Shown here: piece by piece, positions 30,611 to 54,500 of the stretch | How the letters are laid out: each line of letters begins with the position of its first letter | How positions within the stretch are numbered: the first letter of the stretch is position 1 | NCBI RefSeq assembly: GCF_040438885.1 | Contig: NZ_CP159218.1 | Span: forward strand, 496,001-560,000 | Length of the DNA: 64,000 bases | Direction: 5' to 3' | Source: Nakamurella sp. A5-74 | GTDB taxonomy: Bacteria > Actinomycetota > Actinomycetes > Mycobacteriales > Nakamurellaceae | Program-made: the position numbers and the translations under genes | Notes under the pieces: generated by a model | What the model was told of the DNA's origin: nothing | Databases searched by the model: none | What the model saw: the letters and a program-made list of their open reading frames with translations, nothing else

Positions 30611-30620
30611 GTCGGAGGTC

Positions 30621-30647
30621 GCCGGCACCCTGTGTCGGGGCGCCGGC
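30621..30647. terminator. Hairpin after the importer operon
   Basis: GCCGGCACCC (30621-30630) folds with GGGCGCCGGC (30638-30647): nine pairs with one A-C mismatch and a 7-nt loop, 11 bp after the SIS-gene stop. It lies between convergent genes (the MarR gene ends at 30742). Confidence 0.6.
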
Positions 30648-30741
30648 TGTTCAACCATGAGCGGGATGGGAACGACGTCAGCCCAGCAGACCGCGTTCGA
30701 CGGCACCGGACTTCGGTGCGGTACTGATCATGGAGGGGACC

Positions 30742-31251: not shown

Positions 31252-31282
31252 GGCGCTCACCCTACCCGAATGTTGCGGGGCA

Positions 31283-31304
31283 ACCTCATCATGAGGTAAC
31301 CTCA
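31283..31304. promoter_or_regulatory. Overlapping palindromes, probable MarR operator
   Basis: ACCTCAT-C-ATGAGGT (31283-31297) is a perfect 7-bp-arm palindrome. It shares its right arm with TGAGGT-A-ACCTCA (31292-31304), a second perfect 6-bp-arm palindrome. The three half-sites alternate in direction. They lie in the divergent promoter region of the MarR gene and the exporter, so binding could block both. Confidence 0.7.
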
Positions 31305-31439
31305 GCAATAGCGGAGCCCGCAGGTCGCATCCTGCGCCCGGATCCGCACGGTCCGAGACATTCCCGTCCCGGACCAGGCAGGCCCGACCAGGTCGCCCAT
31401 CCACTTCCGAGCCCATCCACGTCCGAGAGGCCGCACCCC

Positions 31440-34655: not shown

Positions 34656-35791
34656 CGCAGTACTTCCTGCAGCACGGCCGCCGCGATCTCGATGTCGTCG
34701 TCGGTGACGTCGAGATGAGTGGTCGCCCGGATCCGGCCCCGACCGAAGTCCAGCAGCCGGACACCCCGCTCGGCTGCCGCGGCGATCACCGCCGGTGCCC
34801 GGTCGGCACCGTCCAGGGCGAACAGCACCACGTTCGTCTGCGGGGTCGCGACCAGCGAGATCCCCGGTAGCTCCGCCACGGTGTCGCCGAGCCACGCCGC
34901 GCGACGATGGTCGTCGGCCAGGCGATCGACCATCTCGGTGATCGCCAGCAGGCCGGCCGCCGCCACGATCCCAGCCTGACGCATACTGCCCCCCAACACC
35001 TTCCGCCACCGACGGGCCGCAGTGATGAACTCCACGGAACCCGCGAGCATCGAGCCGACCGGCGCCCCGAGACCCTTGGACAGGCAGAACTGCACCGAGT
35101 CGCAGTCGGCGGCCAGGTCGGCGACACTGCGGCCGGTGGCGACCGCGGCATTGAAGATCCTGGCCCCGTCCAGGTGGACGGCCATCCCGTGCGTGCGGGC
35201 GAAGCTGATGGCCGCACCGACGCGGTGCGGCGGGGTGATCACTCCGCCGGCGCGATTGTGCGGGTTCTCCAGACACAGCAGTGACGGCCGGGAGAACTGC
35301 GGATCGTCCCAGTCCTCGGGGAGGACCGCTGCAAGCGCGTCGGCATCGAAGCCGCCGTCCGTTGCATGCGGGACCGCCTGGTAGGCAACCCCTCCCAGGG
35401 TGGCTGCGCCGCGCCCCTCGTAGAGGTGGATGTCGGACTCGATGCCGGCGATCAGAGAGCTGCCGCGCGGGCAGTGCACCAGGATCGCGGTCAGGTTGGC
35501 CATCGTGCCGCTGGGCATCAGACAGGCAGCCCGCTTGCCCAGCAGGGCTGCCGCCGTCTCCTCGAGACCGGTGACCGTCGGATCCTCGCCGTAGTCGTCG
35601 TTGCCGACCTCGGCGGCGCCCATCACTGCGCGCATCCGCTCGGTGGGAAGGGTGAAGGTGTCCGACCGCAGCTCGACGATCCGGGACCGGGTCGTGCCCG
35701 GAAACGCCGGCGCCGCAGCGGGTTCGGCAGGACGTGAGGACTTGCTGGTGGTGGACAGGACTGTCTCCTCAGGCGCCGGCGACCGGGACAC
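34652..35791 (-). CDS. L-threonine-aldolase-like PLP enzyme
   Basis: 379 residues from GTG 35791. Fold-type I PLP enzyme of the low-specificity L-threonine aldolase/beta-eliminating lyase family: family start ELRSDTFTLPT, MPSGTMAN, LDGARIFNAAV with the PLP Asp, and Lys239 in FCLSKGLGAPVGS. Such enzymes interconvert beta-hydroxy-alpha-amino acids with glycine plus an aldehyde. In this operon it could supply a beta-hydroxy amino acid or recycle threonine. It overlaps the upstream gene by 23 bp. An internal GAGGAG suggests the first ten residues may not be translated. Confidence 0.85.
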   Translation of the reverse strand: MSRSPAPEETVLSTTSKSSRPAEPAAAPAFPGTTRSRIVELRSDTFTLPTERMRAVMGAAEVGNDDYGEDPTVTGLEETAAALLGKRAACLMPSGTMANLTAILVHCPRGSSLIAGIESDIHLYEGRGAATLGGVAYQAVPHATDGGFDADALAAVLPEDWDDPQFSRPSLLCLENPHNRAGGVITPPHRVGAAISFARTHGMAVHLDGARIFNAAVATGRSVADLAADCDSVQFCLSKGLGAPVGSMLAGSVEFITAARRWRKVLGGSMRQAGIVAAAGLLAITEMVDRLADDHRRAAWLGDTVAELPGISLVATPQTNVVLFALDGADRAPAVIAAAAERGVRLLDFGRGRIRATTHLDVTDDDIEIAAAVLQEVLR

Positions 35792-38117: not shown

Positions 38118-39115
38118 CAGGCTTCGCTCCCAGGATCGGTGTCGGTGCGGAAGACCGTGACGCGTCGGGAGATCGCCGTTGGCGGGCCGACGTCCGCTCG
38201 TGCCGCAGGGTCGCTTCGAGCAGGGTCGGTTCGAGCAGGGTCGTCGTCGCCGCGACAGATCGCTGCACACGCTTCTCGAGCGGCGATCAGGGTGAGTGCA
38301 TGATCGGGGGCAGCAGCATCGAGCAACAACCCGTGCATGGTGCCGCTGTGGGTGGTGACGACCCCCAGTGCGCCGGTACGGGCAGCCGCGTCGCGCAGCG
38401 CCGGCCAGGTCCGTTTGGGGTTGGCCAACTCGGCGAGTTCGGCGCTGCGGGTGCTGATCTCCCCGACGCGCGCCAGGTCGCCCCGGTGCAGCGCGGCGGT
38501 GAGGTGCTGGAGCAGCTCGGCGTACTCGCCGCGTTGGTCCGCGGTGTACGGCTTGCGCATCCGGTTGAACGACACCGTGTCGAGCCGGCCGCCCTCATCG
38601 ATGGCGACGACGGCGAGCGGTGGAATGTGGGAGATCTCGTGACGCAGCCGGACCGAGCAGTGGTCGAACGCCACGATCCCCTCGTGCATCACACCGTCGG
38701 TCGGCTCCACGCCGCGGATCCAGTTCTCGATCGACGCCGGATCGATGGCCAGACCGAGACATCGACCGACCGCGCGCACGGTCGCCACCAGGTCGGCGGA
38801 CGAACTGGCCAGCCCCTTGCCGGTCGGGATCGCCGAGTCGATCACCAGCGTGCCTCCGCCGTGATGGCCTGCGGCGTCGAGCATCCGCCGCGCGACGGCC
38901 TCTGCCTTCCGCTTGTGGGACGGGTAGATCACCAGCTCCTCGCCATGTCCGAGCCGGAAGGTGGCATGGGAACGCAGGGCGATCGGAAGCGTCACCAGGA
39001 AGTCCGTCCCGTCGGGCAGCACCCCCTGCAACAGTTCGCCGAAGGTGCCGGCCGCGGATGCGGTCGCTCCGCGGACGTCGACGCCCTGCCGACCGGTGAT
39101 CACCCCCCGGGTCAT
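38117..39115 (-). CDS. GHMP-family kinase, PduX (L-threonine kinase)-like
   Basis: 332 residues from ATG 39115, overlapping the upstream stop (ATGA). Motif 1 GTFGELLQGVLPDG and motif 2 IPTGKGLASSSADL (residues 96-109, the ATP-binding loop) define a GHMP kinase; the GELLQG variant is typical of PduX-like kinases that phosphorylate L-threonine in cobamide synthesis. No cobamide genes are nearby. Next to a beta-replacement PLP enzyme and an argininosuccinate-lyase-like enzyme, it most likely makes O-phospho-L-threonine (or O-phospho-L-serine) for diamino acid formation. Confidence 0.85.
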   Translation of the reverse strand: MTRGVITGRQGVDVRGATASAAGTFGELLQGVLPDGTDFLVTLPIALRSHATFRLGHGEELVIYPSHKRKAEAVARRMLDAAGHHGGGTLVIDSAIPTGKGLASSSADLVATVRAVGRCLGLAIDPASIENWIRGVEPTDGVMHEGIVAFDHCSVRLRHEISHIPPLAVVAIDEGGRLDTVSFNRMRKPYTADQRGEYAELLQHLTAALHRGDLARVGEISTRSAELAELANPKRTWPALRDAAARTGALGVVTTHSGTMHGLLLDAAAPDHALTLIAAREACAAICRGDDDPARTDPARSDPAARADVGPPTAISRRVTVFRTDTDPGSEA

Positions 39116-40551
39116 GACGGACCACCGCGGGGAGCCGTGCGGTCGGCAAGATCCCGGCGGATCAACTGGATCAGCTCGAGCACCCTGACGGGTGACGTGC
39201 CGCCCTCGGTGACCTTGGCCGCCAATGCGGCCACCGGGTCGAAAGCGTTGTCCAGCAGCGATTCCAGGATGCGGTGCGGCAGTGGATGGCCGGCGCCCGT
39301 GAGTGCGTCGGAGAGCAGGGTCACCCCTGCCCGGCCGGGGGCAACCCCCTGCTCGAGTGCCGCGACGACGTACCGGCCACTGATCACCTGGGCCTCCCGC
39401 CAGCCGATCCCGTGATCCAGGGTGAGCCGGTTCGCCAATGAGAACGCTCCGAGGAACTCGGCGCCGGCGTCGGCAGCGGCCCGCTCGGTGTCGAGCCGGA
39501 AGGACGAGATGACCGTCGTGGCAAGTGCGAGCACGGACCCGGCCGCATCGAGGGCGGTCGGCAGCAGCGCTGAGGCCTCCTTGGAGACCTCGACCAGGTT
39601 CGTGTAGGTGGTGTTCCGCTGGCCCAGCGCGGCATCGAGATAGCAGGCCGTGAGGTGCGCCGTTCGGCCGCGGATGCGTTCCAGCACCGGGTAGTTCCGC
39701 TTCTGCGGCATGGCCGACGAGATGCCGGCCAGGTCGTCGGGCAGCCACAGGTAGCCGACCGGACCGGAACCCCAGCCCATCAGGTCGGTGGTGAAGCGGG
39801 ACAGTGTCACACCGAAGTTCGACAGCGCAGCGGTGAGCGCCAGCACCCAGTGGCGGGAAGCCACCGCGCCGAGCGCATGCCGGGCGGGACGGGCGAAACC
39901 CAGTGCTGTGGCGAGCTTCCGGCGGTCCCAGGGCAGGTCGCCGCCGGCCATCGCGCCGGCGCCGAGCGGACAGCGGTCCACGAGGTCTCGGGCCGCTGCC
40001 AGTGTGTCCAGTGTGTCCAGCAGTTCCTCGGCCAGCGCACTGAGGAAGAAAGCGGGGGATATCACCTGTGCCGCCTGCAGGTGCGTCTGCCCGGGCAGCG
40101 GATCGGTGAGGTACTCCTGCGCCCGGTCGAGGGTGACGGCAGCCAACCCCGCCACCGATGCGCTGATCGCGTCGATGCGCTCCCGGGCATACATCCGTTG
40201 GGCGGTGGCCTGCAGATCGTTCCGACTGCGGTCGACATGCCATCCCGCGACCGTCCGACCGAGTCGGCTGTTCACTCCGGTCTCGATCGCGAAGGCGACG
40301 TCGGAGAAGTTGGCCGCTGCGTCCGGGGAGATTCCCGCGGCGCCGAGGGCGACGAGCGCGGCGTGCAGGTCGGCGCAGTCGGTCTCCGACAGGACGCCCA
40401 TCCGGTGGTACTCGTCGACCAGGGCCCGTTCTGCAGCGATGTAGTGCGGCAGCAGTCGGGCGGCCTCGTGGGCGAACTGCGGGCGCAGGATCTGCTCGTC
40501 GAGCACGGCCCGCGGAGAGCCGTCGATCCGACCGGTGAGGGGTGTGTTCAT
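39112..40551 (-). CDS. Argininosuccinate-lyase-like fumarate-releasing lyase
   Basis: 479 residues from ATG 40551. Superfamily signatures: WHVDRSRNDLQAT (residues 104-116, matching HT.RSRND), PGQTHLQAAQ (153-162) and ISSAMPQKRNYP (277-288, the catalytic Ser loop). Variations from true ArgH (HVD for HTG, RNY for KNP) suggest a different substrate. No other arginine genes occur here. In this operon it would cleave an N-succinyl adduct, formed from aspartate and a phospho-amino acid, to fumarate plus a 2,3-diamino acid. Start overlaps the upstream stop by 4 bp. Confidence 0.88.
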   Translation of the reverse strand: MNTPLTGRIDGSPRAVLDEQILRPQFAHEAARLLPHYIAAERALVDEYHRMGVLSETDCADLHAALVALGAAGISPDAAANFSDVAFAIETGVNSRLGRTVAGWHVDRSRNDLQATAQRMYARERIDAISASVAGLAAVTLDRAQEYLTDPLPGQTHLQAAQVISPAFFLSALAEELLDTLDTLAAARDLVDRCPLGAGAMAGGDLPWDRRKLATALGFARPARHALGAVASRHWVLALTAALSNFGVTLSRFTTDLMGWGSGPVGYLWLPDDLAGISSAMPQKRNYPVLERIRGRTAHLTACYLDAALGQRNTTYTNLVEVSKEASALLPTALDAAGSVLALATTVISSFRLDTERAAADAGAEFLGAFSLANRLTLDHGIGWREAQVISGRYVVAALEQGVAPGRAGVTLLSDALTGAGHPLPHRILESLLDNAFDPVAALAAKVTEGGTSPVRVLELIQLIRRDLADRTAPRGGPS

Positions 40552-43500
40552 CGGCGCGCCACCGCAGTCAGTCGGGCTGCCACGACAGCGGCGGCGAGTT
40601 CGGGGCGGGTCCGGCAGAACAGCGGACCGCCCTCGGTGACGGTGAGCTCCGTTGCTCCCGGCCAGTCGGCAGCCGTCGCCACCGCAGACCCGTCGTCCGA
40701 CGCCCGGACGAGCACGAGCGGTACCGGCAGCGCGGTGGCGCCGGTGTCGGCCACGCCGAGTCCGTCGTCGAGCAGGTCGAGCTGGGACTGCATCAGCTCG
40801 TGCCGGTAGACCCGCGCCAACCGCTGCCCGTCCTGCGCCGAGAGGGCACCGAGATCGACGTCCAGCGCGTCGGCGGCCTGCTCCGCGAGCTGGACATCGG
40901 CAGTTGCGGCGAGCACCGCGTTGCCGCGGAGGATGCCGCGCCGATCCCTGGCCGGTTGCGAAGCAAGGAACACCCCGTCGATCCGGAGTTCCGGGCGACG
41001 CGCCAGAGCGATTGCCGTGGCTGCCCCACTTCCCTGACCCCACAGCACGATCGGTAGCACACCGTCGGCCGCGGGAGCCGCCCCGAGTTCGGTGGCGACC
41101 GCGTCGACGAGGTCGGCTCCGGTGGGCAGCATGGCGTCCGCGGGCAGGCTCTGGCCAGGATGCTCCAGCGCCGACACCCGCACCCGTGGGTGCGCTGCCG
41201 CGACGGCACCGGCGAACTGCCGCGCGAGGAGTGCACTCGCGCCGGCCGGTGGCAGGAACACCAGGTGTGCCGACGGGTCCGCGGGAGTGATGAGTGGCAG
41301 CAGCAGCGCCGGGACTGCGCCGAGTGCCTTCGTCCGCGATTCCCCGCGCTCGGTGCCACTCGGCCTGCCTCGCTCCTGCACCAGCGCCAGCAGGTCGCCG
41401 AGCACCGGTCGGGAGAACAGGTCGGCGATGCCGAACAGGCGATCCGCCGCAGCAACGGCACGCAAGGCGCGGATCGACGTCCCGCCGAGCGCGAAGAAGT
41501 CGCTGTCCCGGCGGAGGGCCCCTGCCGGGATCTCCAGCGCACCGGCCCAGGCAGCCAGGACCCGCGCTGTCGGCGTAGCCGACTCGCCGACCCGGTGCTG
41601 CCCGGGACGCTCGGTGCTCTGCCGGTCGAGATGCTCGGTGGCAATCCGGGTCAGGGCCTTCTTGTCGACCTTGCCGTTCCCGTTGAGCGGCAATGCCTCC
41701 AGCTGCACCAGTGTGGTCGGAACGGCGGCCGCCGGCAGCGAGAGTCGCAGCTGCGCGTCGGCGGCGGCCAGATCGATCGGCCTGCTGCCGGTGACGAAGC
41801 CGGCCAGTTCCTTGCCGTCCCCGGACGCGATGGTGATCACCGCGGCCTCGCCGACACCGGCGAGCGAGCGCAGCCGGAACTCGATCTCGCCGAGCTCCAG
41901 TCGGATCCCGGCGATCTTCACCTGCTCGTCGCGGCGTCCGTGGAACTGCAGCGTGCCGGTGGGCAACCACCGGCCGTAGTCACCGGAGCGGTACAGGCGC
42001 GCGCCGGGGATCACGGGGTCGGGGCCGAAGGCGGCGGCGGTCCGCTCCGGGTCGTTCAGGTACCCGAGTCCGACCATGATCCCGGAGAAGGTGATCTCGC
42101 CGATCGATCCGGGCGGTACCGGGCGGTCGTGGTCGTCGAGCACGTGGACGACGACGTTGATGTTGGGGCGCCCCACCGGCACGCTCGGGCCGTCGGGAGC
42201 GCGGTCCATGATCTCGTGGGTGGTGTCGTCTGAGGCCTCGGTCGCGCCGTAGGCGTTGATCAAGGTGATCCCGGGAAGCGTCTCGAACAGGCGACGGGCG
42301 ATCGGCAGGCTGATCGCCTCACCGGTCACCGAGAGGCAACGCAGTGTCCGCAGGGCTGCCACATCGTTCGGAGCCTGCAGGTGGTCCAGCAGGATTGCCA
42401 GGTAGCTGGGAACCACCTGGGCGATCGACACCCGGTGCTCGGCGAGGAGCTGCAGCGTCGTCGGAACGTCCAGCAGCGCAGCATGATCGGCGATCAACAC
42501 GCTCGCCCCGACCATCAGCGGCGCCGCGAACTGCCACAGCGAGATGTCGAAGGTGGTCTGTGCGGACTGCAGGACCACGTCGGTGTCGGTGAGCCCGAAG
42601 TCCCGGATCTTGGCCCACAGGTGGTTGTCCATCCCGCCGTGCCCGCACAGCGCACCCTTGGGCTCGCCGGTTGAACCCGAGGTGAAGTACACGTAGGCGG
42701 GATCGAACGGACCTGGTTCACGGACAGCCGGCCCTGCTGCTGCGGAATCCTGCGGGCTGCGCGGGACCACGATCCGGTCCGGTGACGCGACCAGCCCGAG
42801 GCTCTCCGGTCCGTCGATGACCAGGCGCGCACCGGAACGACGGACGAGGGTCTCCCGCCGCTCGGCCGGGTCGTGCGGATCCAGCGGCAGGTACACCGCG
42901 CCGGCCCGCATGATGCCCAGCACCACCGCGATCCACAGCGGGCTGCGCTCCAGCGCCACGGCGACGACCTGTCCGGGACGAATCCCGGCAGCCTCGACCG
43001 CGCGGTGCACGGTGTGCACCGCGGTGAGCAGAGTGCGGTAACTGGCGGCAGTCTCGCGGTGCACGACAGCCGTCCGGTCCGGGTGCCTGAGCGCGCGGTG
43101 CTCGAGGGCATCGAAAAGACTGTGCGGCAACTTCTCCACGATCTCGCCGGTGCCCAGCCGGGTGTTCAGACCACGTTCGTCCTCGGTGAGCAGGTCGACG
43201 GCCGACACCGTCGCTGCCGGATCTTCGGTGGCCGCGGCAATCGCGGTCCGGATGTGCTCCAGATGTGCGGTCACCCCGGCCGGATCACGCAGCGACGACG
43301 CCATCGTCACGGTGAGCCGGGCTCCGTCGACGTCGAGCTGGATACCCTCGCTGCGCACCAGGACCCGGTCGCTGCCCGTGCTGCCGGCGCCGGTCGCTGC
43401 CGCGGTGTCGGCGATCAGGGCTGCCCAGTTGCCCGAGAGTCCGAAGTCGATCGGTGCCGGGTCTGCTCCGTCGAGAACGCCGCCGATCTGGACGGACACC

Positions 43501-43784
43501 TCGTTCTCCGAGGCGAGCAGTCCGAGAGCGCGCAGATGGGCGGCGACCGCGACAGCAGCAGACCCGGTACCGAGCCGTATCCCGAGAGCGCCTGCCGCCG
43601 AGGGGATCTCCGCCGACGCGACGACGAACGGTGCGGTGGTCCCCGCCGGGGCAGCGCAGGTGCCGGTGCCGTTGACGAACGGGAGGACGACGGTCGTCCC
43701 GGTGAGACCGGTGGGCACACCGGGGTCCCCAATCCCATCCTGCCGCGGGGGATGTCGTGCCGGGACCCGCACTCCTGAGCTCAT
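40548..43784 (-). CDS. NRPS: partial C - A - T - degenerate thioesterase
   Basis: 1078 residues from ATG 43784. Residues 1-220 resemble only the C-terminal part of a condensation domain and lack HHxxxDG. The A domain (about 225-720) has YFTSGSTGEPKG and INAYGATEAS; the ten specificity residues read D413 I414 W417 Q456 S485 T487 A511 D519 D520 K705. This is close to a diamino-acid signature I recall (DIWELTxDDK), unchecked. The carrier Ser is 770 (ALGGTSIRA). Residues 838-1078 look like a type II thioesterase, but the nucleophile motif reads WGQGSG (Gly918 where Ser is expected) and the catalytic-His position reads GGPLF. It is probably the terminal line protein. Confidence 0.88.
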   Translation of the reverse strand: MSSGVRVPARHPPRQDGIGDPGVPTGLTGTTVVLPFVNGTGTCAAPAGTTAPFVVASAEIPSAAGALGIRLGTGSAAVAVAAHLRALGLLASENEVSVQIGGVLDGADPAPIDFGLSGNWAALIADTAAATGAGSTGSDRVLVRSEGIQLDVDGARLTVTMASSLRDPAGVTAHLEHIRTAIAAATEDPAATVSAVDLLTEDERGLNTRLGTGEIVEKLPHSLFDALEHRALRHPDRTAVVHRETAASYRTLLTAVHTVHRAVEAAGIRPGQVVAVALERSPLWIAVVLGIMRAGAVYLPLDPHDPAERRETLVRRSGARLVIDGPESLGLVASPDRIVVPRSPQDSAAAGPAVREPGPFDPAYVYFTSGSTGEPKGALCGHGGMDNHLWAKIRDFGLTDTDVVLQSAQTTFDISLWQFAAPLMVGASVLIADHAALLDVPTTLQLLAEHRVSIAQVVPSYLAILLDHLQAPNDVAALRTLRCLSVTGEAISLPIARRLFETLPGITLINAYGATEASDDTTHEIMDRAPDGPSVPVGRPNINVVVHVLDDHDRPVPPGSIGEITFSGIMVGLGYLNDPERTAAAFGPDPVIPGARLYRSGDYGRWLPTGTLQFHGRRDEQVKIAGIRLELGEIEFRLRSLAGVGEAAVITIASGDGKELAGFVTGSRPIDLAAADAQLRLSLPAAAVPTTLVQLEALPLNGNGKVDKKALTRIATEHLDRQSTERPGQHRVGESATPTARVLAAWAGALEIPAGALRRDSDFFALGGTSIRALRAVAAADRLFGIADLFSRPVLGDLLALVQERGRPSGTERGESRTKALGAVPALLLPLITPADPSAHLVFLPPAGASALLARQFAGAVAAAHPRVRVSALEHPGQSLPADAMLPTGADLVDAVATELGAAPAADGVLPIVLWGQGSGAATAIALARRPELRIDGVFLASQPARDRRGILRGNAVLAATADVQLAEQAADALDVDLGALSAQDGQRLARVYRHELMQSQLDLLDDGLGVADTGATALPVPLVLVRASDDGSAVATAADWPGATELTVTEGGPLFCRTRPELAAAVVAARLTAVARR

Positions 43785-46700
43785 CCGCGCGCACCGCTGA
43801 GGGCATCGGGCTCGCGCGCGGCGTCGGTGCCGCGTCCGGCGCCACGGGTGCGCTCCAGTTCCTCGAGGCCGATGAGGTCGTCCGGCAGCGAGTCCGGGAC
43901 CTCCAGGTCGAGGTCGCGCAGTGCTCGGATGCACAGGCCGGCGACAGCGTTCAGCGTCATCAGCGCACCGAAGATGACGAACGCCAGCGCGGTTCCGCGG
44001 CCGCCTCCCGTGCCGATCACCGCACCGACGGAACCGGCCAGCGATCCGGTGGGCTCCATCCACGGCTGGAACCAGTGCTGCACCATGAACGGCACCACCA
44101 GGAAACCGATCGGGAACGTCGACCAGGCGAGCGTCTGGCCGACCGCGAACACCCGACCGTGGTACCGCTGCGGCACCTTGGTCTGGATGATGGTGACGTA
44201 GATCCCGTTGGCCAGGCCCAGCGAGAACGTGGTGCCCAGCACCCCGGCGGCGATCGGAGCCATCGACGGCGCGAGACCGGTCAACATCACGAACAGCCCG
44301 GAGATGCCGATCAGGAACAGGTTGAACCGCATCCGGCGCCGGACGGGGCCGCCCCAGGCTGCCATCGCAGCGCCACCGAGCAGGCTGCCCGCGGCCTCCC
44401 AGGCGGCGATCACGGCGACGTTCTGGAGCGATCCGAAGCCGAGCACCAGTGGCGGAGTGAGCAGCAGCGCCGGCGCGTACAGCAGGTTGCCGACGGCGAA
44501 GAAGATGTTCATCAGGCGGAAGTGCCGGTTGTTCCAGACCAGCCGGAAGCCGCCGAACACCTGCTCGCCGAAGGACTCCTTGCGGATGCGTCCCAACCTG
44601 TTCGGGAAGCGCACGACGGCCAGCACACCGAGTGCGATCACGTAGCTGGCGACGTCCAGCAGCAGCATCCCCTCCAGGCCGATGAGCGCATACAGCCCGG
44701 CAGCAGCGATCGGGACGAAGAGCTGACCGGCACCGTTGATGATCCCCAGCACCCCGTTGGCGTGCCCGATGAACCGCTTGGGGACCAATTGGGGGACGGC
44801 TGCGGTGAACGCGATCCGCTGGACCGTGCCGAACGCACCGAGGAACATGATGAGAACGAACAACGCTGCGACGGAAGGATTCTCGGCGATCACGACCGTC
44901 GTGATCACCACCTCGGCGACGGTCGCACCGATGCAGGCGGTGACGATCACCCTGCGTCGGTCGAAGCGGTCGGCCAGGGCGCCCGCGATGGGGCTGGTGA
45001 GGATCACCGGCAGGAACGCGATCACCGCTGTCAGCCCGAACAGTCCCAGCGAGCCGGTCCGTTGCAGGATCCAGATCGGGATCGCCCACCCGGCCAGCTG
45101 GGAACCGATGGTGGAGGTCAGTTGGCCGGCCGCGATCGCCAGGAACCGGCCCATGCTTGGCTCCTCCGTTCCGGGGCCACGCGGTACCGGTCTGGCCGGG
45201 GTACGGGGCGGAGTTGCTCCCTGGGCCGCCGGTGCGTCACCGGCCACCGGCACCGGGTCCTCGCGCCGGGGGTCGTCGGATCGCGCCGCAGCAGCGGGCG
45301 TGGCACCCGACAGAGCCTGGATGGTGACGGCCTGCGGTGCGGACACCGGCTCCCCGACGACGTGGTCGTCGGCCAGCCACCAGGTCGCCTGCGGATCGTC
45401 CTCGGACGGCAGCGCAGCGGCCGGATCCGGTTGCCGCAGCGCCGCATCCGTCCTGGTGATGATCTGCACCAGCTCGGCGGCGCGATACTTGAGGAAGAAG
45501 TGGCCCGCCTCCGCCAGCACCACCACCGCGCTGCGGTCGGTGAGGAACTCCCACTCCCGGTAGCGCTCGAGGTAGTAGTCGGTGATCGGATCCCGCTCAC
45601 CGACCACGGTGATGATCGGCGCGCTGAGCTTCACCGGGTCGGAGGCGAGGAGTGCGGTGAAGTGCTCCTCCGCATGGTCGCCGTCCCGGCGCATGTTCGA
45701 GATGATCCGGTCGGCCTGGCCGGGCTCCAGATCGGCCAGGTCGACGCCCATCGACTTGAGCCAGTTGCTGTGGTTGCGGTTGCTGGCGCGGTCGGAGAAC
45801 CAGTGGGCGACCCTTGCGAACGTGCCGTGTGCGCGGGCGAACGGGAAGATGCCGCCGACATAGACCGCCTCCACGTCCCGTCCGGAAGCCTCGATCCGCC
45901 GGGCGATCTCGATGATGAGCGCGCCACCGACGCCGCAGTGGCCGTAGAGCACCACCGGCCCGGTGACCTTCTCGAGAATCTCGGCCGTGCAGCGCTCCGC
46001 GAGCTCGTCGAAGGGCAGGCCCGCTTCCTCGAGCCCGACGTCGTGACCGGGAATGGCGACCGAGTACAACCGGTGGTTCTTCGGAAGGGCGTCCGCCAGC
46101 GGTTGGTAGACGACGGCCGAGCCCCCGCCGTAGGGAACGCAGACCAGTGACCGCTGCGTACCGGCGACCGTCCGGCCGGATGTCAGCTCGTAGAGCAGCG
46201 CCCGCACGTGTGGCTGGTCGGATTCCACCAGAGCCGCCAGCCCGGCCACCGTCGGATGCTGGAACAGATCCATCACGCTGATGGAGGTGCCCTCCGGGAG
46301 CACCGGACGCAGCTTGGCGACCACCTGGGTGGCCAGCAGCGAGTGGCCCCCGAGGGCGAAGAAGTCGTCGGCGGCGCCGACCTTGTCCACCCCGAGCACC
46401 TGTTGCCAGACCTCGGCGATCGCCTGCTGGGCGCCGGGAGTCGGCGGCACGAACTCACCGGTGCTGACCCCGATCTCGGGCATCGGCAGCGCGCCGCGGT
46501 CGAGCTTTCCGTTGGGGGACAACGGCAGCAAGTCGATCACGACCAGGTGCGCCGGCACCATGTACGTCGGCAGGGCGGCCACGGCGCGGCTGCGCACCGC
46601 GTCCAGATCGATCGGTACGGCGACGCCGTCCGCGTCCAGTTCCGGGACCAGGTAGCCGACCAGACGAACGTCTCCCGCGGTGGGCTCCTTGACAGCAGCT

Positions 46701-49588
46701 GCGGTGAAACGGATCCCGGGTCCCTCACCGAGCAGATGCTCGATCTCGCCGAGTTCGATCCGTTGGCCGCGCAGCTTGACCTGCCCGTCCAACCGCCCGT
46801 GGAACTCGAGGGTTCCGTCCGGACGCCATCGCGCCTGATCGCCGGTGGCGTAGGCGCGGCGGGACGCGGGCGCGGTGCCGCCGGTCCAGGCGGATTCCGG
46901 GAGGACGACGAACCGCTCCGCAGTGAGCTCCGCGCGGTTGAGGTAGCCGCGGGCCACCTGCACCCCGGAGATGTACAACTGCCCGGTCGCGCCGACCGGA
47001 ACCGGGCGCTGCGCCTCGTCCAGGACGTGCAGTCCGGTGCCCGGCACCGGGCCGCCGATCGAGACCCGGCCGGTGCGCCGGATGGTCTCGGCATCGCAGC
47101 GCCCTGCGCTGACGTCGATCGCTGCCTCGGTCGGTCCGTACAGGTTGTGCAGCTCGGCCTGCGGAAGGGCATCGAGGCAGAGCAGCGCCGTGGGTGCGGA
47201 CAGTTCTTCGCCGCTGCACACGACAGCGCGGATGGGGAGCGCTGCACCGTCACCCGGCGGGAGCTCGGCCAGGAAGATGTCGAGCATCGACGGCACGAAA
47301 TGGGCGATGCTGACGGCGTTCTCGGCGATCAGCGTGCGTAGATGTGCGGGATCCCGGTGCCCGCCCGGCGCTGCGAGCACCAGGTTGGCACCGGTCACCA
47401 GCGGCCAGAAGAACTCCCACACCGAGACGTCGAACCCGGCCGGCGTCTTCTGCAGGACGCCTTCGCCCGGCCCGATGCCGAACCGTTCCTGCATCCACAT
47501 CAGCCGGGCGACGATCCCCCGGTGTTCGTTGACGACGCCCTTCGGTCGACCGGTGGAACCGGAGGTGTAGATGACGTAGGCAGCTGCGGTGTCGGCCGCG
47601 GACCCGTCGTGGTGCTGTGTTCGCTTTCCTGACAGGGCTGTCGGGCTGGGCGCTGCGCCGTCCCGGAGCAGTGGCAGGCCGTCGGCGTCGGCGGGCGCCA
47701 CGGGAACCGTCACGGACGACAGGATCGCGGCGGCGCCAGGATCGGCGAGTACCGCGAGCGCGCCGGAGTCCTGCACCATGAACGTCAGCCGGTCGACCGG
47801 GTACTCCGGGTCGAGGGGGAGGTAGGCGGCGCCGGAGCGCAGCACACCGACGAGCGCGGTGATCAGCTCGATCGACCGGGCGATGGAGACGCCGACGATG
47901 TCCCCGGCCCCGATTCCGGCCCGGCGGAGCCGATCGGCGACCAGATCGGCCGCCGCGGACAGCTCCGCGTAGCTGCAGACACTGCCGTCCGCCGCCCTGA
48001 CCTGGGCTGTCGGGTGCTCGCCGAGGCCGGCGTCGATGAGCTCGGTGAGCGTCCGCCCGGCGCGGGTCTGCTGCGCGAGAGTCGACTCGCCTTCGTTGAA
48101 GTGCGCAAGGGCCGCCTGCTGGACCTCGTCCAGGATCTCGATCTCGTCGATGCGGACGGCGCCGCTGCTGGGCAACCGCCCGAGCAGTGCGGTGAAGGAG
48201 TCCAGGATCGCCCGGGTGAACTCCGAGGAGAACAGCGCGGTTCCCGACACCAGCCGTCCGCCGAGGTCGCCGTCGGGTCGCAGGTGGGTGTGCAACTCAA
48301 GTTCGAAGCGGGTGGCGGGAAGATCGATCGGCGACCAGTCGACCGCCGGGGCCGCCGGCGTGGCAGCGGGCCCGGATGCCGCTGCGGCGTCGGGGTTCTC
48401 GCCGAAGCTGGCGTAGTTCTGCAGGACCAGCATGGCCTGGAACAGGGGCGGGCGTGACGGGTCGCGGACGAGGCCGAGCTGCTGCACGACCCGCTCGAAG
48501 GGAACCTGCTCGTGCGAGAGCGCTTCCAGAACCCGGGTCCTGGTGGCCGCCAGCGCCTCGTCGACGGTCATCTCCGGCGTGAGGTCGGCGCGGATCGGCA
48601 GCATGTTGACGAACATGCCGACCGCCTCGTCGAGCTCCGGCAGGCTGCGCCCGGCCACCGGTGCGCCGACCGCGAAGTCCCACTGCCCGGCGAAGCGGGC
48701 CAGCACGATCTGGTAGGCGGTCATCAGCGCCATGAACTGGGTGGCGCGGTGGCCGCGGGCCCAACCCTCGAGTGCCTCGACGTCTGCCCGGGGGATCCGG
48801 AACGTGATGGCCTGCCCGGTGTACTGCTGGGTGGCCGGGCGGGGACGGTCCGTCGGCAGTGCCAGTGGCGGGACCGCCGCGAGCCGCTGCACCCAGTGAT
48901 CGATGTGCGTCGCCGTCTCCGGCCGCTCGCACCAGCGGCGCTGGTGGGCAGCGAAGTCGCCGTACTGGACGGGACGCCGGTCGATCCACGGGATCTCCCG
49001 GCCCGACTCGAGAGCGCTGCAGGCAGCGCTCAGCTCGCGGAGCAGCACGTCGTTGGACCAGCCGTCGGTGACGATGTGGTGCATCCCGCAGACCAACCGG
49101 AAACCGGTCCCTGCGACATCCAGCAGGACGGCGCGGAACAGTGGGCCGGTCGACAGCTCGAACAGCTCGGTCGCGATCTCGTCCGTACGCGCAGCGGCGA
49201 CTTCCTCGGACTCGAGCCGCTCCAGCTGCAGCGGAACGAGCTTGTCGACAGACAACACCCGCACCGTCGGTCGGCCGTCGGCGTCGGCAGGGAACACCAT
49301 CCGCAGCGACTCGTGGCGCGCCAGCACCGCCTGCCAAGCGGCGATGATGGTCGCCGGCCGCAGGGTCGCAGCGAAATGGAACACCTGCGGGGTGAGGTAA
49401 GCGGCGGTCCCCGGAGCGAGCTGCTCCATGAACCACACCCGCTCCTGGGCGAACGACAGCGGGGCAGGTTCACCGTCCCCGCGAGGCTCGATCTGTTGAC
49501 GGACAGCAGGTTTCAGCGCTCCGAGACGGCGCCGCAGCAGCTCTTGCTGGCCTTGGGAGAGGGCCGTGCGGTCCTGTGTGGTGCTCAT
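43781..49588 (-). CDS. NRPS (C-A-T-TE) fused in frame to an MFS exporter
   Basis: 1935 residues from ATG 49588. C domain 40-470 with HHIVTDG (170-176). A domain about 520-1035 with YTSGSTGRPKG; specificity residues D720 V721 W724 H763 V790 S792 L816 I824 D825 K1028 read DVWHVSLIDK, the L-serine code. Carrier Ser1083 (ALGGHSLLA). The TE (about 1145-1380) has GHCGVG with Cys1218 as nucleophile, Asp1333 and His1363. A 100-residue Ala/Pro linker leads to an MFS transporter from Met1479, with about 12 membrane segments and the RFDRRR loop. A strong internal ribosome-binding site precedes Met1479, so a free exporter may also be made. Confidence 0.92.
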   Translation of the reverse strand: MSTTQDRTALSQGQQELLRRRLGALKPAVRQQIEPRGDGEPAPLSFAQERVWFMEQLAPGTAAYLTPQVFHFAATLRPATIIAAWQAVLARHESLRMVFPADADGRPTVRVLSVDKLVPLQLERLESEEVAAARTDEIATELFELSTGPLFRAVLLDVAGTGFRLVCGMHHIVTDGWSNDVLLRELSAACSALESGREIPWIDRRPVQYGDFAAHQRRWCERPETATHIDHWVQRLAAVPPLALPTDRPRPATQQYTGQAITFRIPRADVEALEGWARGHRATQFMALMTAYQIVLARFAGQWDFAVGAPVAGRSLPELDEAVGMFVNMLPIRADLTPEMTVDEALAATRTRVLEALSHEQVPFERVVQQLGLVRDPSRPPLFQAMLVLQNYASFGENPDAAAASGPAATPAAPAVDWSPIDLPATRFELELHTHLRPDGDLGGRLVSGTALFSSEFTRAILDSFTALLGRLPSSGAVRIDEIEILDEVQQAALAHFNEGESTLAQQTRAGRTLTELIDAGLGEHPTAQVRAADGSVCSYAELSAAADLVADRLRRAGIGAGDIVGVSIARSIELITALVGVLRSGAAYLPLDPEYPVDRLTFMVQDSGALAVLADPGAAAILSSVTVPVAPADADGLPLLRDGAAPSPTALSGKRTQHHDGSAADTAAAYVIYTSGSTGRPKGVVNEHRGIVARLMWMQERFGIGPGEGVLQKTPAGFDVSVWEFFWPLVTGANLVLAAPGGHRDPAHLRTLIAENAVSIAHFVPSMLDIFLAELPPGDGAALPIRAVVCSGEELSAPTALLCLDALPQAELHNLYGPTEAAIDVSAGRCDAETIRRTGRVSIGGPVPGTGLHVLDEAQRPVPVGATGQLYISGVQVARGYLNRAELTAERFVVLPESAWTGGTAPASRRAYATGDQARWRPDGTLEFHGRLDGQVKLRGQRIELGEIEHLLGEGPGIRFTAAAVKEPTAGDVRLVGYLVPELDADGVAVPIDLDAVRSRAVAALPTYMVPAHLVVIDLLPLSPNGKLDRGALPMPEIGVSTGEFVPPTPGAQQAIAEVWQQVLGVDKVGAADDFFALGGHSLLATQVVAKLRPVLPEGTSISVMDLFQHPTVAGLAALVESDQPHVRALLYELTSGRTVAGTQRSLVCVPYGGGSAVVYQPLADALPKNHRLYSVAIPGHDVGLEEAGLPFDELAERCTAEILEKVTGPVVLYGHCGVGGALIIEIARRIEASGRDVEAVYVGGIFPFARAHGTFARVAHWFSDRASNRNHSNWLKSMGVDLADLEPGQADRIISNMRRDGDHAEEHFTALLASDPVKLSAPIITVVGERDPITDYYLERYREWEFLTDRSAVVVLAEAGHFFLKYRAAELVQIITRTDAALRQPDPAAALPSEDDPQATWWLADDHVVGEPVSAPQAVTIQALSGATPAAAARSDDPRREDPVPVAGDAPAAQGATPPRTPARPVPRGPGTEEPSMGRFLAIAAGQLTSTIGSQLAGWAIPIWILQRTGSLGLFGLTAVIAFLPVILTSPIAGALADRFDRRRVIVTACIGATVAEVVITTVVIAENPSVAALFVLIMFLGAFGTVQRIAFTAAVPQLVPKRFIGHANGVLGIINGAGQLFVPIAAAGLYALIGLEGMLLLDVASYVIALGVLAVVRFPNRLGRIRKESFGEQVFGGFRLVWNNRHFRLMNIFFAVGNLLYAPALLLTPPLVLGFGSLQNVAVIAAWEAAGSLLGGAAMAAWGGPVRRRMRFNLFLIGISGLFVMLTGLAPSMAPIAAGVLGTTFSLGLANGIYVTIIQTKVPQRYHGRVFAVGQTLAWSTFPIGFLVVPFMVQHWFQPWMEPTGSLAGSVGAVIGTGGGRGTALAFVIFGALMTLNAVAGLCIRALRDLDLEVPDSLPDDLIGLEELERTRGAGRGTDAAREPDALSGARG
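45152..45170 (-). promoter_or_regulatory. Internal Shine-Dalgarno and ATG inside the NRPS-MFS gene
   Basis: On the minus strand ACGGAGGAG is followed after 6 nt (CCAAGC) by ATG 45154-45152, exactly at the first residue of the MFS domain. The spacing is ideal. Initiation here would give a separate exporter of about 457 residues (bases 43781-45154). Confidence 0.65.
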
Positions 49589-51477
49589 CGATCGCTCCCT
49601 GGTGCGGTTGCCGCTTCGACGGACAGACGTTGCCCGGTCTCTTCGTCGGACAATGCGGCGATCTCGGCGATCAGCGCCCGCTCCAGTACGGCGCCGACGC
49701 CGCGGACCGTCGTGTCGGCGAAGAACTCGGCGATCGACAGATCGACCCCCGCGGCTTCCCGGATCCTGGCGATCACCCGGAGAGCGAGCAGGGAATGGCC
49801 GCCACAGGCGAAGAACTCGTCATCCGCGCCCAGATCCCGCCCCTGCTCGGGCAACACTTCGCGCCACGTCGCTGCGACCAGCTCCTCGGTGGGCGACAAC
49901 ACTGCCGCACCGTCCGGCGCGTCGAAGGCCGCCGGCGCGTCCGATCCGGCGGGTGTCCCGCCGGGCGACAGTGCCGTGGGTGACGGTGCTGTGGGTGACG
50001 GTGGCGTGGGCGACGGTGCCTTGGGCGACGGGGTCGCCGACGACCCAGCGGCAGTGGCGCCCGTGATCCGACGCCGCAAGGGCAACTGGGACAGCCGGAT
50101 CGACGGATCCGCGCACACGGCTGCCAGGGTGTCGGTCAGATCATCGGCGAGTTGCACGGCGGTCTCCTCGCGGAACAGCGCCGTGTTGTACTCGATCCGC
50201 AGACCGAGCCGACCGAACCCGTCGAGGCCCACCTCGCACCCGATGTCGTCCTCGGCGGAGGTGACGGTGGCCCGCTGCGCCATCGCCAGATGGTTGAAGC
50301 CGATCTGGTACAGCGGCGGAACCGCCTGGCCCGCGCGGGCGGCGTGACGCCGGACCAGGCGCTGGAACGGCATCTGTTGGTGCTCCAGCACTTCCAGGAT
50401 GTTCCCCCTGGCCAGCTCGAGCAGTTCGGTGAAGGTGGGATCGCCCGCGATCGGCACCCGCAGCACGACCATGTTCACGAACATCCCGATCACCCTGTCG
50501 AGCTCGGGCCGGTTGCGACCGGTGACCGGTAACCCGACGACGAGATCGGTGCTGCCCGACCATCCGTGCAGAACGGCCAGGAACGCCGAGCAGAGCACCA
50601 TGAAGTCGCTGCTGCGGTGTTCGGCCGCGAACTGCGAGAAGGTACTGCTCAACTCGGCGTCGAGTCGTCGGTAGACGTCGGCGGCGGCGAAGGTCCGCTC
50701 GTCCGGCCGAGGGAAGTCGGTCGGGATGTTGTGGACTGCAGGCAGTCCGTCGAGCGTCGCGTCCCAGAAGTCGTCGAGTGCGGCGAGCTCGGTGGCCATC
50801 CCCGTGCGCTGCCATTCCGAGTAGTCGACGTACTGCAGCGGGGATGCCGGCAGCTGCGGTGCGCGGGCGGTGGTGGCCGCGGCGATCAATTCGGTCAGCT
50901 CGCCGCGGATGATCAACAGCGAGGCGCCGTCAGCCACGGCGTGGTGGATGGACAGGATCATCCGCCAGTCGTCGTCGGAGACCCGCGCGATGGCCAGCCG
51001 CCACGGTGGTGGGGTGTCCAGCTCGAGCGGCGCATCCAACAAGCCGTGGGCCAGGATCCGCAGGCCGTCCATCCGACGGTCGTCCGGAAGTGCGCCGAGA
51101 TCCCATACCGGGATCTCCACGCCGATCTCGGTGTGCACGTGCTGGAGGAGTTCCTGCTCGCGCCGATGGACGGTGGTGCGGAGCGACTCGTGCCGCTCGA
51201 CGATCGTCGTCCACGCTGCGGTCAGGGTGTCGATCGCGCTCGCCGTCCCCGCGGCCGGCGACTCGGTGGCAGTGCCCACCGGTCCCCAGAGCAGCTCGTC
51301 GTAGATGTGGTACAGCGCCCGGTCGGCCGAGACATGGCTGGCGAACCACATCCGTTCCTGGGCCGCGGATGCCGGCACCTCGAAGTCCTCGCCGGCCGCG
51401 CGCACACGGATCGGCACCGTCGGCGCGGTGCGAACGATTCCGGCGGTGGTCGGACCGATGTCGGTATCGGTGCTCAT
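49585..51477 (-). CDS. NRPS condensation-carrier didomain without A domain
   Basis: 630 residues from ATG 51477, with GGGGA upstream; a longer frame from 51636 would run into the PKS gene. C domain (about 30-465) with active-site HHAVADG (178-184) and a complete C-terminal lobe. A low-complexity Ser/Pro/Thr linker (about 479-505) leads to a carrier domain with Ser562 (ACGGHSLLA). No adenylation domain is present, so the carrier must be charged in trans. It lies 103 bp after the PKS stop, the only real gap in the operon, and overlaps the next gene by 4 bp. Confidence 0.9.
   Translation of the reverse strand: MSTDTDIGPTTAGIVRTAPTVPIRVRAAGEDFEVPASAAQERMWFASHVSADRALYHIYDELLWGPVGTATESPAAGTASAIDTLTAAWTTIVERHESLRTTVHRREQELLQHVHTEIGVEIPVWDLGALPDDRRMDGLRILAHGLLDAPLELDTPPPWRLAIARVSDDDWRMILSIHHAVADGASLLIIRGELTELIAAATTARAPQLPASPLQYVDYSEWQRTGMATELAALDDFWDATLDGLPAVHNIPTDFPRPDERTFAAADVYRRLDAELSSTFSQFAAEHRSSDFMVLCSAFLAVLHGWSGSTDLVVGLPVTGRNRPELDRVIGMFVNMVVLRVPIAGDPTFTELLELARGNILEVLEHQQMPFQRLVRRHAARAGQAVPPLYQIGFNHLAMAQRATVTSAEDDIGCEVGLDGFGRLGLRIEYNTALFREETAVQLADDLTDTLAAVCADPSIRLSQLPLRRRITGATAAGSSATPSPKAPSPTPPSPTAPSPTALSPGGTPAGSDAPAAFDAPDGAAVLSPTEELVAATWREVLPEQGRDLGADDEFFACGGHSLLALRVIARIREAAGVDLSIAEFFADTTVRGVGAVLERALIAEIAALSDEETGQRLSVEAATAPGSDR
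49964..50038 (-). repeat. Five degenerate 15-bp repeats (SPTAP-type linker)
   Basis: Units start at 49964, 49979, 49994, 50009 and 50024 with a core of GGTGACGGTGCTGTG. They encode Ser-Pro-Thr/Lys-Ala/Pro-Pro pentapeptides between the C and carrier domains. Confidence 0.85.
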
Positions 51478-51580
51478 GCTGTGTCCCCGATCTGTGACCG
51501 GTCCACGACTGGCGTGGTGGTCGATGCTGGTGCCGGCGGTGCGGAGCCGGACGGGCGGGCGCGGTCTGCAGGGCTGCGAC

Positions 51581-54500
51581 TCATCTGCCGGGTCGGACGA
51601 GTCGCGGGATGCTGCCGTCTTCCGGGCCTGCCCCATCGGTCGACAGGGTCGGCTGCTCGGCGTTCTCGACCTCTGCCGCCTCCGCGGCAGGAAGTGCGGA
51701 TACCGCCGATGCTTCCGGCGACCCCGACGCTGCAGGCGATCCGGTGGCCTCGGCGGCGGCGCGCATCGCGTCCACCTGGTCGGCCATCTCCTGCACCGTA
51801 GGGGCGTCGAAGATGATCCGCATGGGCAGTCGGACCCCGACGGCCTTGCGGATCTGGCCGATCAACTGCACCGCGACGAGGGAGTTGCCCCCCAACGCGA
51901 AGAAGTCGTCCTCCGCTGCGACGTCGGGGACGCCGAGCACCGCCGACCAGACGGCCGCGATGGTGGCCACCGTTCCACTGCCGGACGGCACCGGACCGTC
52001 GCCGGTCTGGACGACCTCCTCCGGATCGGTCCCGCCGGAACGGACCCGGTCCAGGAGTTCCGCCACGCTCATGGGGTTGATCACCACCTGCGGCCCGAGT
52101 CCGGAGGACGCCAGCAACCGGAAAGCGGTCACCCCGTCGGCCGTGGCGATCCGGATCCCGGCGGCGCCCGAGCTGACCCGATGGGGTGCGGTGTCGGACA
52201 CCGGTTCTGCGGCCGGCAGCTGCCCGTCCGATGGCCGGTCGCCGGCCGTGACGGCTTCCGGGTCGATGCGCCGCAGCGCGAAGTCCCTGATGCGCACCAG
52301 GATCCGGCCGTCCGGATCGATCAGCTCCAGATCGGCGGCGACCACTTCGCCGGGCTCTCCGCTGTAGCGCAGGACCGACAGGAACTCGGCCGGCAGGGGC
52401 GCGAACACGGTCACCTCGCCGTACCCGATCGGCAGGTAGGCACCATCGCCCCGCTCGCTGAAGGCGGTGGCGACGTCCAGCAGCGCCGGGTGCAGGTGCC
52501 AGCCCTCGCTGCTCGCCCCAGGACCAGGGACGGTGACCTCAGGGACGGTGACCTCAGGGACGGTGACATCTGAAACGGTGACATCAGCGGCAGTCACATC
52601 AGGAACGGCAACCAGTTCCGCCACTTCCATCCCCGGTCCCATCCAGTGCCGGCGCAACACATCCCAGCGCGGTCCGAAGCTCACGACGCTCGTCCTCGAC
52701 TGGCCGCGGAACAGCCCGCTGGCGGCCGCGTCCTTCTCCAGGACGCCGGCCAGCAGGGCCTCCGGATCCAGTGCGCCGGCAGCTTCGGTCGTCGCGGTCA
52801 CCGACGCCTGCGCATGCCGGGTGGTGACGCCGTCCAGCGTGCGAAGCACGGTCACCGCGCGTTCCCCGGTCGCGGTGTCGGCACCCGGCTCGGCGACGAA
52901 CTCGACGCGCAGCGTTGCCGCGGCTCCGTCGGGCACCCGCAGCGGGGCCAGGAATGCCAGATCGGCGATCGAGACGCCCGGCGCGTCCGGGAAGCAGGCC
53001 CGATGGGCAGCGACGATCGCCTCGATCATCCCGGTTCCCGGGAGCACCGGCACGCCGCCGATCCGGTGCTGGTCGAGCACCCAGTGGGTCTCCGCCGAGA
53101 TCTCGCCCTCGGCGGACACGCCGTCGCAGCGGGTCAGGAGCGGGTGCTCCATCGGCTGGAGAGCGGTTGCGGCAGAGGCTGTTCCGGGAACCAGCGGATC
53201 GCCGCTGACGGCACCGCCCGGCACCGAGACCGTCTCGACGGCCATTCCGATCTCCGACCAGCCGCCCCAGTTGACGCTGACCACGGGCCCCGACCACCCG
53301 GGGGCGGCGGCCACCGCGTCCAGGAACGCGTTGCCCGAGCAGTAGTCGACCTGCCCGATGTCACCGGCCAACGCCGTGATCGACGAACACAACACCACCA
53401 GCTCGACCGGCACCTCGGCGAACGCGGTCCGCAGGGCCAGCGCGCCGGCCACCTTGGGCGCCAGCACCGAGTCGGCCACCGCCGGCTCCTTGACCTCGAG
53501 CATGCCGCCACCCGCCACACCGGCGGCGTGCACGATGCCGTCCAGCCCGCCCCAGGCCTCGTTGAGTTCGGCCGCAACCGCGGCCAGCGCGGCGGGATCG
53601 GTGACGTCGGCAGCGATGACCCTTACCTCGGCGCCGGCTCCCTCCATCGCCCGAACAGCAGCGATGGTGCGTGCAGTGCGATCCCCGCCGAGGCTCTCGG
53701 CTCCCGGTGCCGGCCAGCTCTCCCGCGGCGGGAGTGGGGTACGGGCCAGCAGCGCCAACCGACCGCGGTACCGGTTCGCCAGCTCGGTCGCCACACTCAC
53801 CCCGATGCCGCCTGTCCCGCCGGTGATCAGGTAGCGGCCTCCCTCGCGGAACCCTGGTTGCTGCGCCGTCGGACGGGTCTGGGTGAAGTCCTTGACCCAC
53901 CGCCGGTCCGATCGCAGCGAGACCTCACGCGGTTCGCCGGTGGCCAACAACTCGCGGACGACCGCCGAATCGCGGCTGCGGTCGTCGACATCGATCCACC
54001 TGGTCCGCAGGAACGGCAACTCCAACGCGCCCACCCGGACGGGACCGGCGACCAGCGCTGCCTGGGCCACGACATCCTCGCCGCCGGTGACCGGGGCGAC
54101 CGGTGGGGTCAGCACCGTCAACGCCACCGTGGGCGGCTCCGGCAGCTCGGCGAGTGCCTGCAGGACGCCGAGCAGGTCGTGGAAACCATTCTGCAGCAAC
54201 TCATCCGGGGCACTGTCCAGGGCGCGCACGTGTACCAACCTGATTGCCTCCGGCGCCCGGTCGGTGACGCCGGAATGCGCTGCCGGCCCTGCTGCAAGTC
54301 CTGCGGCTGAGACCGCAGCGGCGACCCCGGCAGCGTCGGTGTCCAGCGGGAGCACCTCGGTCCCACCGGCCCGCAGTGCTGCCGCGATGCGATCGGCGCG
54401 GGCGCCGCTGCCGATGACGAGCACCGGCGCGGCCACGGTCGTGGCAGACAGGGGAGGCAGCTCGCGGAACGTCGGAACGGCGAACCAGTCCTCGATCACC

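What the first reader, a model, noticed from the sequence alone, without database searches (positions are those of the whole stretch)
43781..49588. NRPS module covalently fused to its own MFS exporter, with an internal translation start for the exporter
One uninterrupted frame encodes C-A-T-TE, a 100-residue Ala/Pro linker and then a complete MFS transporter. Directly before the first MFS residue is GAGGAG, 6 nt from ATG (45154). Two products are therefore possible: a membrane-anchored synthetase and a free pump. The fusion would place product release at the membrane next to the export channel. I recall NRPS/MFS fusions being annotated in some actinobacteria, but not the dual-start arrangement.
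Basis: partly seen in the sequence, partly recalled or inferred. Interest (0 to 1): 0.8.

Follow-up and report, generated by a model that had tools for sequence, protein, structure and literature searches.

The report
Peptide synthetase fused to an exporter
A bacterial enzyme that finishes building a small molecule is one continuous protein with a membrane pump; relatives in many soil bacteria keep this fusion, but the proposed second start site for making the pump alone is probably a chance feature of this one genome.

Summary
Window 43781-49588(-) is one 1935-aa frame: condensation, adenylation, carrier, thioesterase, 100-aa linker, MFS transporter. GAGGAG lies 6 nt before an in-frame ATG (45154).

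The fusion is a fixed architecture. Of 113 relatives of the MFS domain examined, 111 have a thioesterase upstream in the same frame, including 80 of 80 named loci (the best 80 of 404) from 19 genera. A sister Nakamurella has it in a syntenic cluster.

A 5-base ribosome-site core at this place occurs in 1 of 105 unique fusions, the background rate (16 of 1615 internal ATGs). Sixteen of 105 lack ATG there. A start private to this species is not excluded: its site is stronger than those of the cluster's own genes.

A search with the thioesterase alone finds the same fusions. I read it as a releasing module tethered to its exporter, so that a possibly reactive product leaves as it is made. Transport, substrate and ring chemistry are inferred.

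The parts
43781..49588 (-). Whole fused gene, C-A-T-TE-linker-MFS, 1935 aa
   Evidence: open frame; Pfam
48107..49465 (-). Condensation domain, residues 42-494
   Evidence: PF00668, 292 bits
46505..47992 (-). Adenylation domain, residues 533-1028; code DVWHVSLID, recalled as serine-like
   Evidence: PF00501 and a sub-threshold PF13193; code
46226..46426 (-). Carrier (T) domain, residues 1055-1121
   Evidence: PF00550
45455..46150 (-). Thioesterase, about residues 1147-1378; nucleophile Cys1218, Asp1333, His1363 (residue numbers counted by hand)
   Evidence: PF00975; motif YGHCGVG; triad columns; alignment to ObiF1
45155..45454 (-). Linker, 100 aa, mostly predicted disordered, with one Trp kept in 101 of 101 aligned rows
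45161..45167 (-). GGAGGAG, ribosome-site-like; not conserved
43784..45154 (-). MFS transporter, residues 1479-1935; first codon is the proposed internal start
   Evidence: PF07690, 101 bits; model and MdfA match
40548..43784 (-). Next NRPS gene (A-T and an unassigned tail); its ATG overlaps the fusion's stop
49585..51636 (-). C-T protein upstream
51581..57412 (-). PKS module (KS, AT, KR, DH, T) upstream

Best explanation
The gene makes one protein: a releasing NRPS module (C-A-T-TE) permanently tethered to its exporter. The carrier-bound chain passes to the cysteine of an ObiF-type thioesterase and is released by hydrolysis or ring closure. A flexible linker joins the cytosolic module to the cytosolic N-terminus of an MFS pump, which removes the product. 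Shown by sequence or prediction: the single frame, the domains, the conserved fusion, the Cys-Asp-His triad, the disordered linker. Inferred: serine as substrate, a strained or reactive product, actual transport, and the benefit (export at the point of release, self-protection). The internal GGAGGAG-ATG is most likely a by-product of coding Glu-Glu before a Met that is kept for the protein.
For: 111 of 113 relatives examined have the TE in frame before the MFS; 50 of 53 class-wide MFS matches lie in frames of 1000 aa or more; 21 of 30 loci found with the TE alone are followed in frame by the MFS; syntenic fused orthologue in N. aerolata. TE: Cys in 98 of 105 rows, Asp and His in 75 of 75 whole modules; best solved relative ObiF1 by sequence and fold. 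Linker pLDDT under 50 at model residues 369-423; helix 1 begins at the junction Met. Internal ribosome-site core in 1 of 105; junction as folded as the frame, the true start open.
Against: Transport, substrate and product were not tested. Six fused rows have a Ser nucleophile, and one Cys thioesterase is not fused (L158), so the tie between Cys and fusion is not strict. The presumed starts of the cluster's genes are weak ribosome sites themselves (-1.4 to -7.2 against -12.1 at the junction), so absence of a site in relatives is weak evidence against initiation. Junction ATGs as a set bind the anti-SD slightly better than internal ATGs (medians -3.6 and -3.2, p 0.005).
Confidence: 0.7

Rival explanations
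1. Dual start private to this species: ribosomes also initiate at ATG 45154, giving a free pump beside the fusion.
For: GGAGGAG 6 nt before ATG; best narrow anti-SD energy of 89 ATG rows, -9.5; only about 2.8% of 1615 control ATGs reach its wide energy of -12.1; the presumed true starts of the cluster are weaker.
Against: Not conserved: 1 of 105; sister species reads GGTGGAACCGAGC-ATG; local mRNA folding -18.3 against a frame mean of -17.3 and -7.9 at the true start. The 1-in-105 rate equals background.
Confidence: 0.15
2. The protein is made whole and cut in the linker, giving a soluble synthetase and a free pump.
For: Linker predicted disordered; length varies from 33 to 140 aa over 105 rows.
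Against: I saw no obvious cleavage motif, but did not search for one systematically. A fusion kept in 19 genera would be hard to explain if always cut (inference).
Confidence: 0.1
3. The MFS part is only a membrane anchor, or moves something other than the product of its own module.
For: No transport evidence; other transport genes lie near (ABC exporter 31086-33299).
Against: The MFS part is conserved over its whole length, with invariant charged residues such as D62, R63, D65, R66 and R67 (14 rows); an anchor alone would not need this (inference).
Confidence: 0.15

Closest known systems
ObiF1, obafluorin synthetase (PDB 6n8e; PMC6668435, passages read)
   Same: Terminal module with a Cys thioesterase, Asp on the later strand, Gly at the usual Asp place; best sequence and fold match
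   Different: Its TE is followed by an MbtH-like domain, not by a transporter; it makes a beta-lactone, which is unproven here
SulM thioesterase, sulfazecin (PDB 8w2c/8w2d; PMC11298585, passages read)
   Same: Cys nucleophile with the same Asp position; second-best fold match
   Different: SulM has a Gln-Cys-Asn motif; here it is His-Cys-Gly; no transporter term in that paper
Stand-alone NRPS-neighbour MFS genes of cyanobacteria (Trichormus variabilis, Nostoc sp. MS1)
   Same: Related MFS right after an NRPS gene ending in a thioesterase
   Different: Separate gene, 14 and 32 nt downstream; the thioesterase has Ser (GGWSMGG)
EntS enterobactin exporter and TIGR00900 H+ antiporter family
   Same: MFS part matches both (2e-16 and 6e-46)
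   Different: Both matches are below the curated cut-offs; those are free pumps
Detoxin/rimosamide synthetases RmoH and MirG (PMC9503745, passages read)
   Same: C-A-T-TE protein in an NRPS-PKS cluster with a TauD enzyme
   Different: Described as C-A-T-TE; that paper has no mention of MFS or transporter

Membership tests
ObiF-type Cys-thioesterase terminal NRPS module | GxCxG nucleophile | tested here: met
   YGHCGVG in the window; Cys in 98 of 105 rows, Ser 6, one unaligned
ObiF-type Cys-thioesterase terminal NRPS module | RifR-like triad: Asp on the later strand, no Asp at the usual place | tested here: met
   Asp and His in 75 of 75, Gly at the usual Asp place in 75 of 75 whole modules
ObiF-type Cys-thioesterase terminal NRPS module | Forms a beta-lactone | not testable with these tools
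   needs enzyme assay
MFS transporter | Pfam MFS_1 over its cut-off | tested here: met
   100.6 bits, cut-off 33.4
MFS transporter | Twelve transmembrane helices | tested here: inconclusive
   Model is all-helical and matches MdfA; hydropathy peaks were not countable
MFS transporter | Transport activity | not testable with these tools
   needs transport assay
Gene with a functional internal translation start | Ribosome site and start codon conserved in relatives | tested here: not met
   5-mer core 1 of 105, ATG 89 of 105
Gene with a functional internal translation start | Open mRNA at the start | tested here: not met
   -18.3 against a frame mean of -17.3; mean z -0.26 over 89 rows
Gene with a functional internal translation start | Second protein detected | not testable with these tools
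   needs proteomics
Detoxin/rimosamide C-A-T-TE protein | Protein ends after the TE | tested here: not met
   MFS follows in frame; MirG and RmoH are C-A-T-TE

The most novel reading that the evidence does not exclude
A clade of actinobacterial assembly lines uses a cysteine thioesterase to close a strained, self-toxic ring, and its dedicated pump is built into the same polypeptide, so that the reactive product passes straight out and never builds up in the cytosol: synthesis, release and self-protection in one molecule.
Probability: 0.3. Interest if true: 0.75.

Novelty: new variant of a known kind. Interest (0 to 1): 0.5.

Why it matters
Whether synthetases hand their products directly to exporters is usually argued from gene neighbourhood. 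Here the link is covalent and kept in at least 19 actinobacterial genera, tied to one thioesterase type, so handover can be tested by cutting or lengthening a linker. If the cysteine thioesterase works like ObiF or SulM, these clusters are also a genome-mining handle for strained-ring products.

Tried and rejected
Dual start as a conserved device: rejected. Nucleotide constraint at the junction: the Ser codon before Met is AGY in 90 of 92 rows, which looked special, but other conserved Ser columns are as fixed in one codon class, so descent explains it.

Detoxin/rimosamide membership: I first recalled an MFS tail there; passages of PMC9503745 give C-A-T-TE, and passages of PMC12828459, PMC8302735 and PMC9205934 did not help. 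PMC11520301 (passages) was unrelated.

Single origin of the fusion: in a tree of 54 rows (41 of the 105 fused rows chosen by hand, 9 unfused, 4 outgroup), 39 of 41 fused rows form one clade (99/100), but L032 and L035 fall outside it with support that leaves one origin neither shown nor excluded (59/25); the tool warned of long branches.

Literature: six searches of the open-access library for such fusions listed nothing that I recognised as this architecture; most subscription papers are not held. That RefSeq names such proteins NRPS/MFS is recalled, not checked.

Other dead ends: hydropathy counting of helices; PDB sequence search with the MFS part (no hit); first genome-contig scan with one protein (no relative).

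Rows left out before counts: own-genome general MFS loci L001-L008; L009 and L015 (copies of regions already counted); L014 (30% identity, stand-alone). 114 rows became 107 unique, 105 of them fused; 75 had a whole module. In one search, 7 of 53 rows list one stop inside the match; this was not followed up.

The dual-start rival is put at 0.15 because the weak sites of the cluster's own genes had been left out.

Full report
What is there. The frame 43781-49588(-) is intact and encodes 1935 aa. Pfam places Condensation, AMP-binding, PP-binding, Thioesterase and MFS_1 in that order, all over their cut-offs. The MFS part is 457 aa and starts at ATG 45154; GGAGGAG ends 6 nt before it. The stop codon overlaps the ATG of the next NRPS gene. 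The host is a 4.75-Mb genome in one contig. The genus is Nakamurella by inference: the congener G001 has its match on a contig of 117,071 bases, the length of the N. aerolata contig that holds L045.

Is the fusion special to this genome? No. Of 17 genomes of the family, 2 have a close MFS relative (this one and G001), both in frames over 2000 aa. Of 394 genomes of the class, 22 have matches at 1e-50; 50 of the 53 listed matches lie in frames of 1000 aa or more, the other three in frames of 344-518 aa. A profile scan of named genomes found 404 relatives and kept the best 80. I examined 113 loci: 111 have a thioesterase upstream in the same frame. The exceptions are L033, cut by a contig end, and L036, a stand-alone gene at 33% identity. 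All 80 named loci are fused; they come from 19 genera. This set leans towards close relatives, since only the best matches were kept.

Stand-alone relatives exist further off: beside a DnaE-like polymerase frame (read by eye) in two genomes of the phylum outside the class, in Nonomuraea gerenzanensis (L014), in G073, G438, G502 and G177, and as a separate gene 14 and 32 nt after an NRPS gene in two cyanobacteria.

From the other side. A class-wide search with the thioesterase alone listed 69 matches in 30 of 394 genomes; 30 of the 69 were given as loci, one per genome. Of these 30, 21 are followed in frame by the MFS (L133-L153, three of them with Ser as nucleophile), one is cut by a contig end (L154), one carries a second thioesterase-like stretch instead (L155, read by eye), and seven more distant ones end 8-15 aa after the TE. 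One of those seven has Cys (L158), so Cys alone does not predict fusion.

The internal start. Over 105 unique fusions, window included, a 5-mer of AGGAGGT at -16 to -5 is found only in the window; at internal in-frame ATGs of the same frames the rate is 16 of 1615 (Fisher p 1.0). With 4-mers it is 16 of 105 against 198 of 1615 (p 0.36). The residue is Met in 89, Asn 6, Thr 3, Leu 3, Phe 2, Gly 1, Val 1; two of the Leu codons are TTG. The sister Nakamurella reads GGTGGAACCGAGC-ATG (narrow anti-SD energy -6.0). The mRNA around the junction is as folded as the rest of the frame (-18.3 against a mean of -17.3, SD 4.4), while the gene's true start is open (-7.9); over 89 ATG rows the junction is slightly more folded than its surroundings (mean z -0.26).

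Results against this reading. The window has the best narrow energy of the 89 ATG rows (-9.5). Junction ATGs as a set are slightly better than internal ATGs (medians -3.6 and -3.2, p 0.005), and with a wider anti-SD 42 of 105 junctions reach -6 against 28% of 1615 controls. By eye this comes largely from GGTGG stretches in related Micromonospora, which are not independent. The presumed starts of five genes of this cluster score only -1.4 to -7.2, so this host does not depend on strong sites, and the test has limited power. I therefore leave a species-private start at 0.15.

The thioesterase. The nucleophile is Cys in 98 of 105 rows, Ser in 6, one row unaligned. In 75 rows with a whole module, Cys 72 and Ser 3; Asp at the later-strand place, His, and Gly at the usual Asp place are each 75 of 75. 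PMC6668435 (passages) describes this triad for ObiF1 and ties GxCxG to beta-lactone formation; PMC11298585 (passages) describes it for the beta-lactam-forming SulM. ObiF1 is the best solved relative by sequence (E 2e-28) and by fold, with SulM next. Adenylation code columns, chosen from recalled numbering, read DVWH[IV]SL[IV]D in 55 of 75, which I recall as serine; 13 read DFTK[VIL]GHVG; 7 others.

The model. AlphaFold2 on T-TE-linker-MFS (38 aligned rows) gives mean pLDDT 84; residues 369-423, in the linker, are under 50, and helix 1 begins at residue 430, the junction Met. Thioesterase structures lead the PDB matches; the first MFS matches are MdfA. Linkers run from 33 to 140 aa over 105 rows, yet one Trp is kept in 101 of 101 aligned rows, and Pro-Ser-Met at the junction in most (103, 92 and 89 of 105). 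A cytosolic N-terminus is usual for MFS proteins (established knowledge), so the module would sit in the cytosol against the pump.

The cluster. On the same strand lie a LanB-like protein, an A/C/T NRPS, a PKS module, a C-T protein, an A-T protein, a GHMP kinase, a PALP/ATP-grasp fusion, a beta-eliminating lyase and a TauD oxygenase. N. aerolata keeps PKS, C-T, fusion, A-T, GHMP kinase, PALP/ATP-grasp and TauD in the same order; the lyase has no match there, and the upstream part is outside the locus held. Of 85 loci scanned, 52 have a TauD match and 57 a PKS match (L015 and L045 are one region). I read the fusion as the releasing module of a hybrid line; the product is not predicted further.

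Verdict. The fusion is real, conserved and worth knowing; the dual start is not supported. The strongest new point is the tie between an ObiF-type cysteine thioesterase and a built-in exporter. Six searches of the open-access library listed no description that I recognised, which does not show that none exists.

Noticed in passing
window 61290-63791 (-): LanB-like protein (Lant_dehydr_N) at the head of an NRPS-PKS cluster; Micromonospora chalcea locus L117 has two matches to it beside its own fusion.
   Followed up: partly
window 33666-40243 (-): GHMP kinase, PALP/ATP-grasp fusion, beta-eliminating lyase and TauD beside the synthetases, perhaps a supply route for an unusual amino acid; all but the lyase are kept in order in N. 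aerolata.
   Followed up: partly
window 40548-43784 (-): Tail of the A-T protein looks like a thioesterase whose nucleophile motif reads GQGSG, without the usual Ser or Cys (read by eye; no Pfam hit).
   Followed up: no
L155: Cys thioesterase followed in frame by a second thioesterase-like stretch instead of the MFS.
   Followed up: partly
window 45379-45381 (-), linker: One Trp (residue 1403) in the disordered linker is kept in 101 of 101 aligned rows.
   Followed up: no
genomes G167, G231, G291, G315, G323, G385: Each of these genomes has four MFS matches at 1e-50, nearly all in frames over 1700 aa: several copies of the fusion per genome.
   Followed up: no
window 13036-17998 (-): Type I restriction genes (EcoEI-R-like, specificity subunit) with an Mrr-type nuclease gene.
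   Followed up: no
window 28770-33299 (+): ABC exporter and oligopeptide ABC ATPase beside the cluster on the other strand.
   Followed up: no
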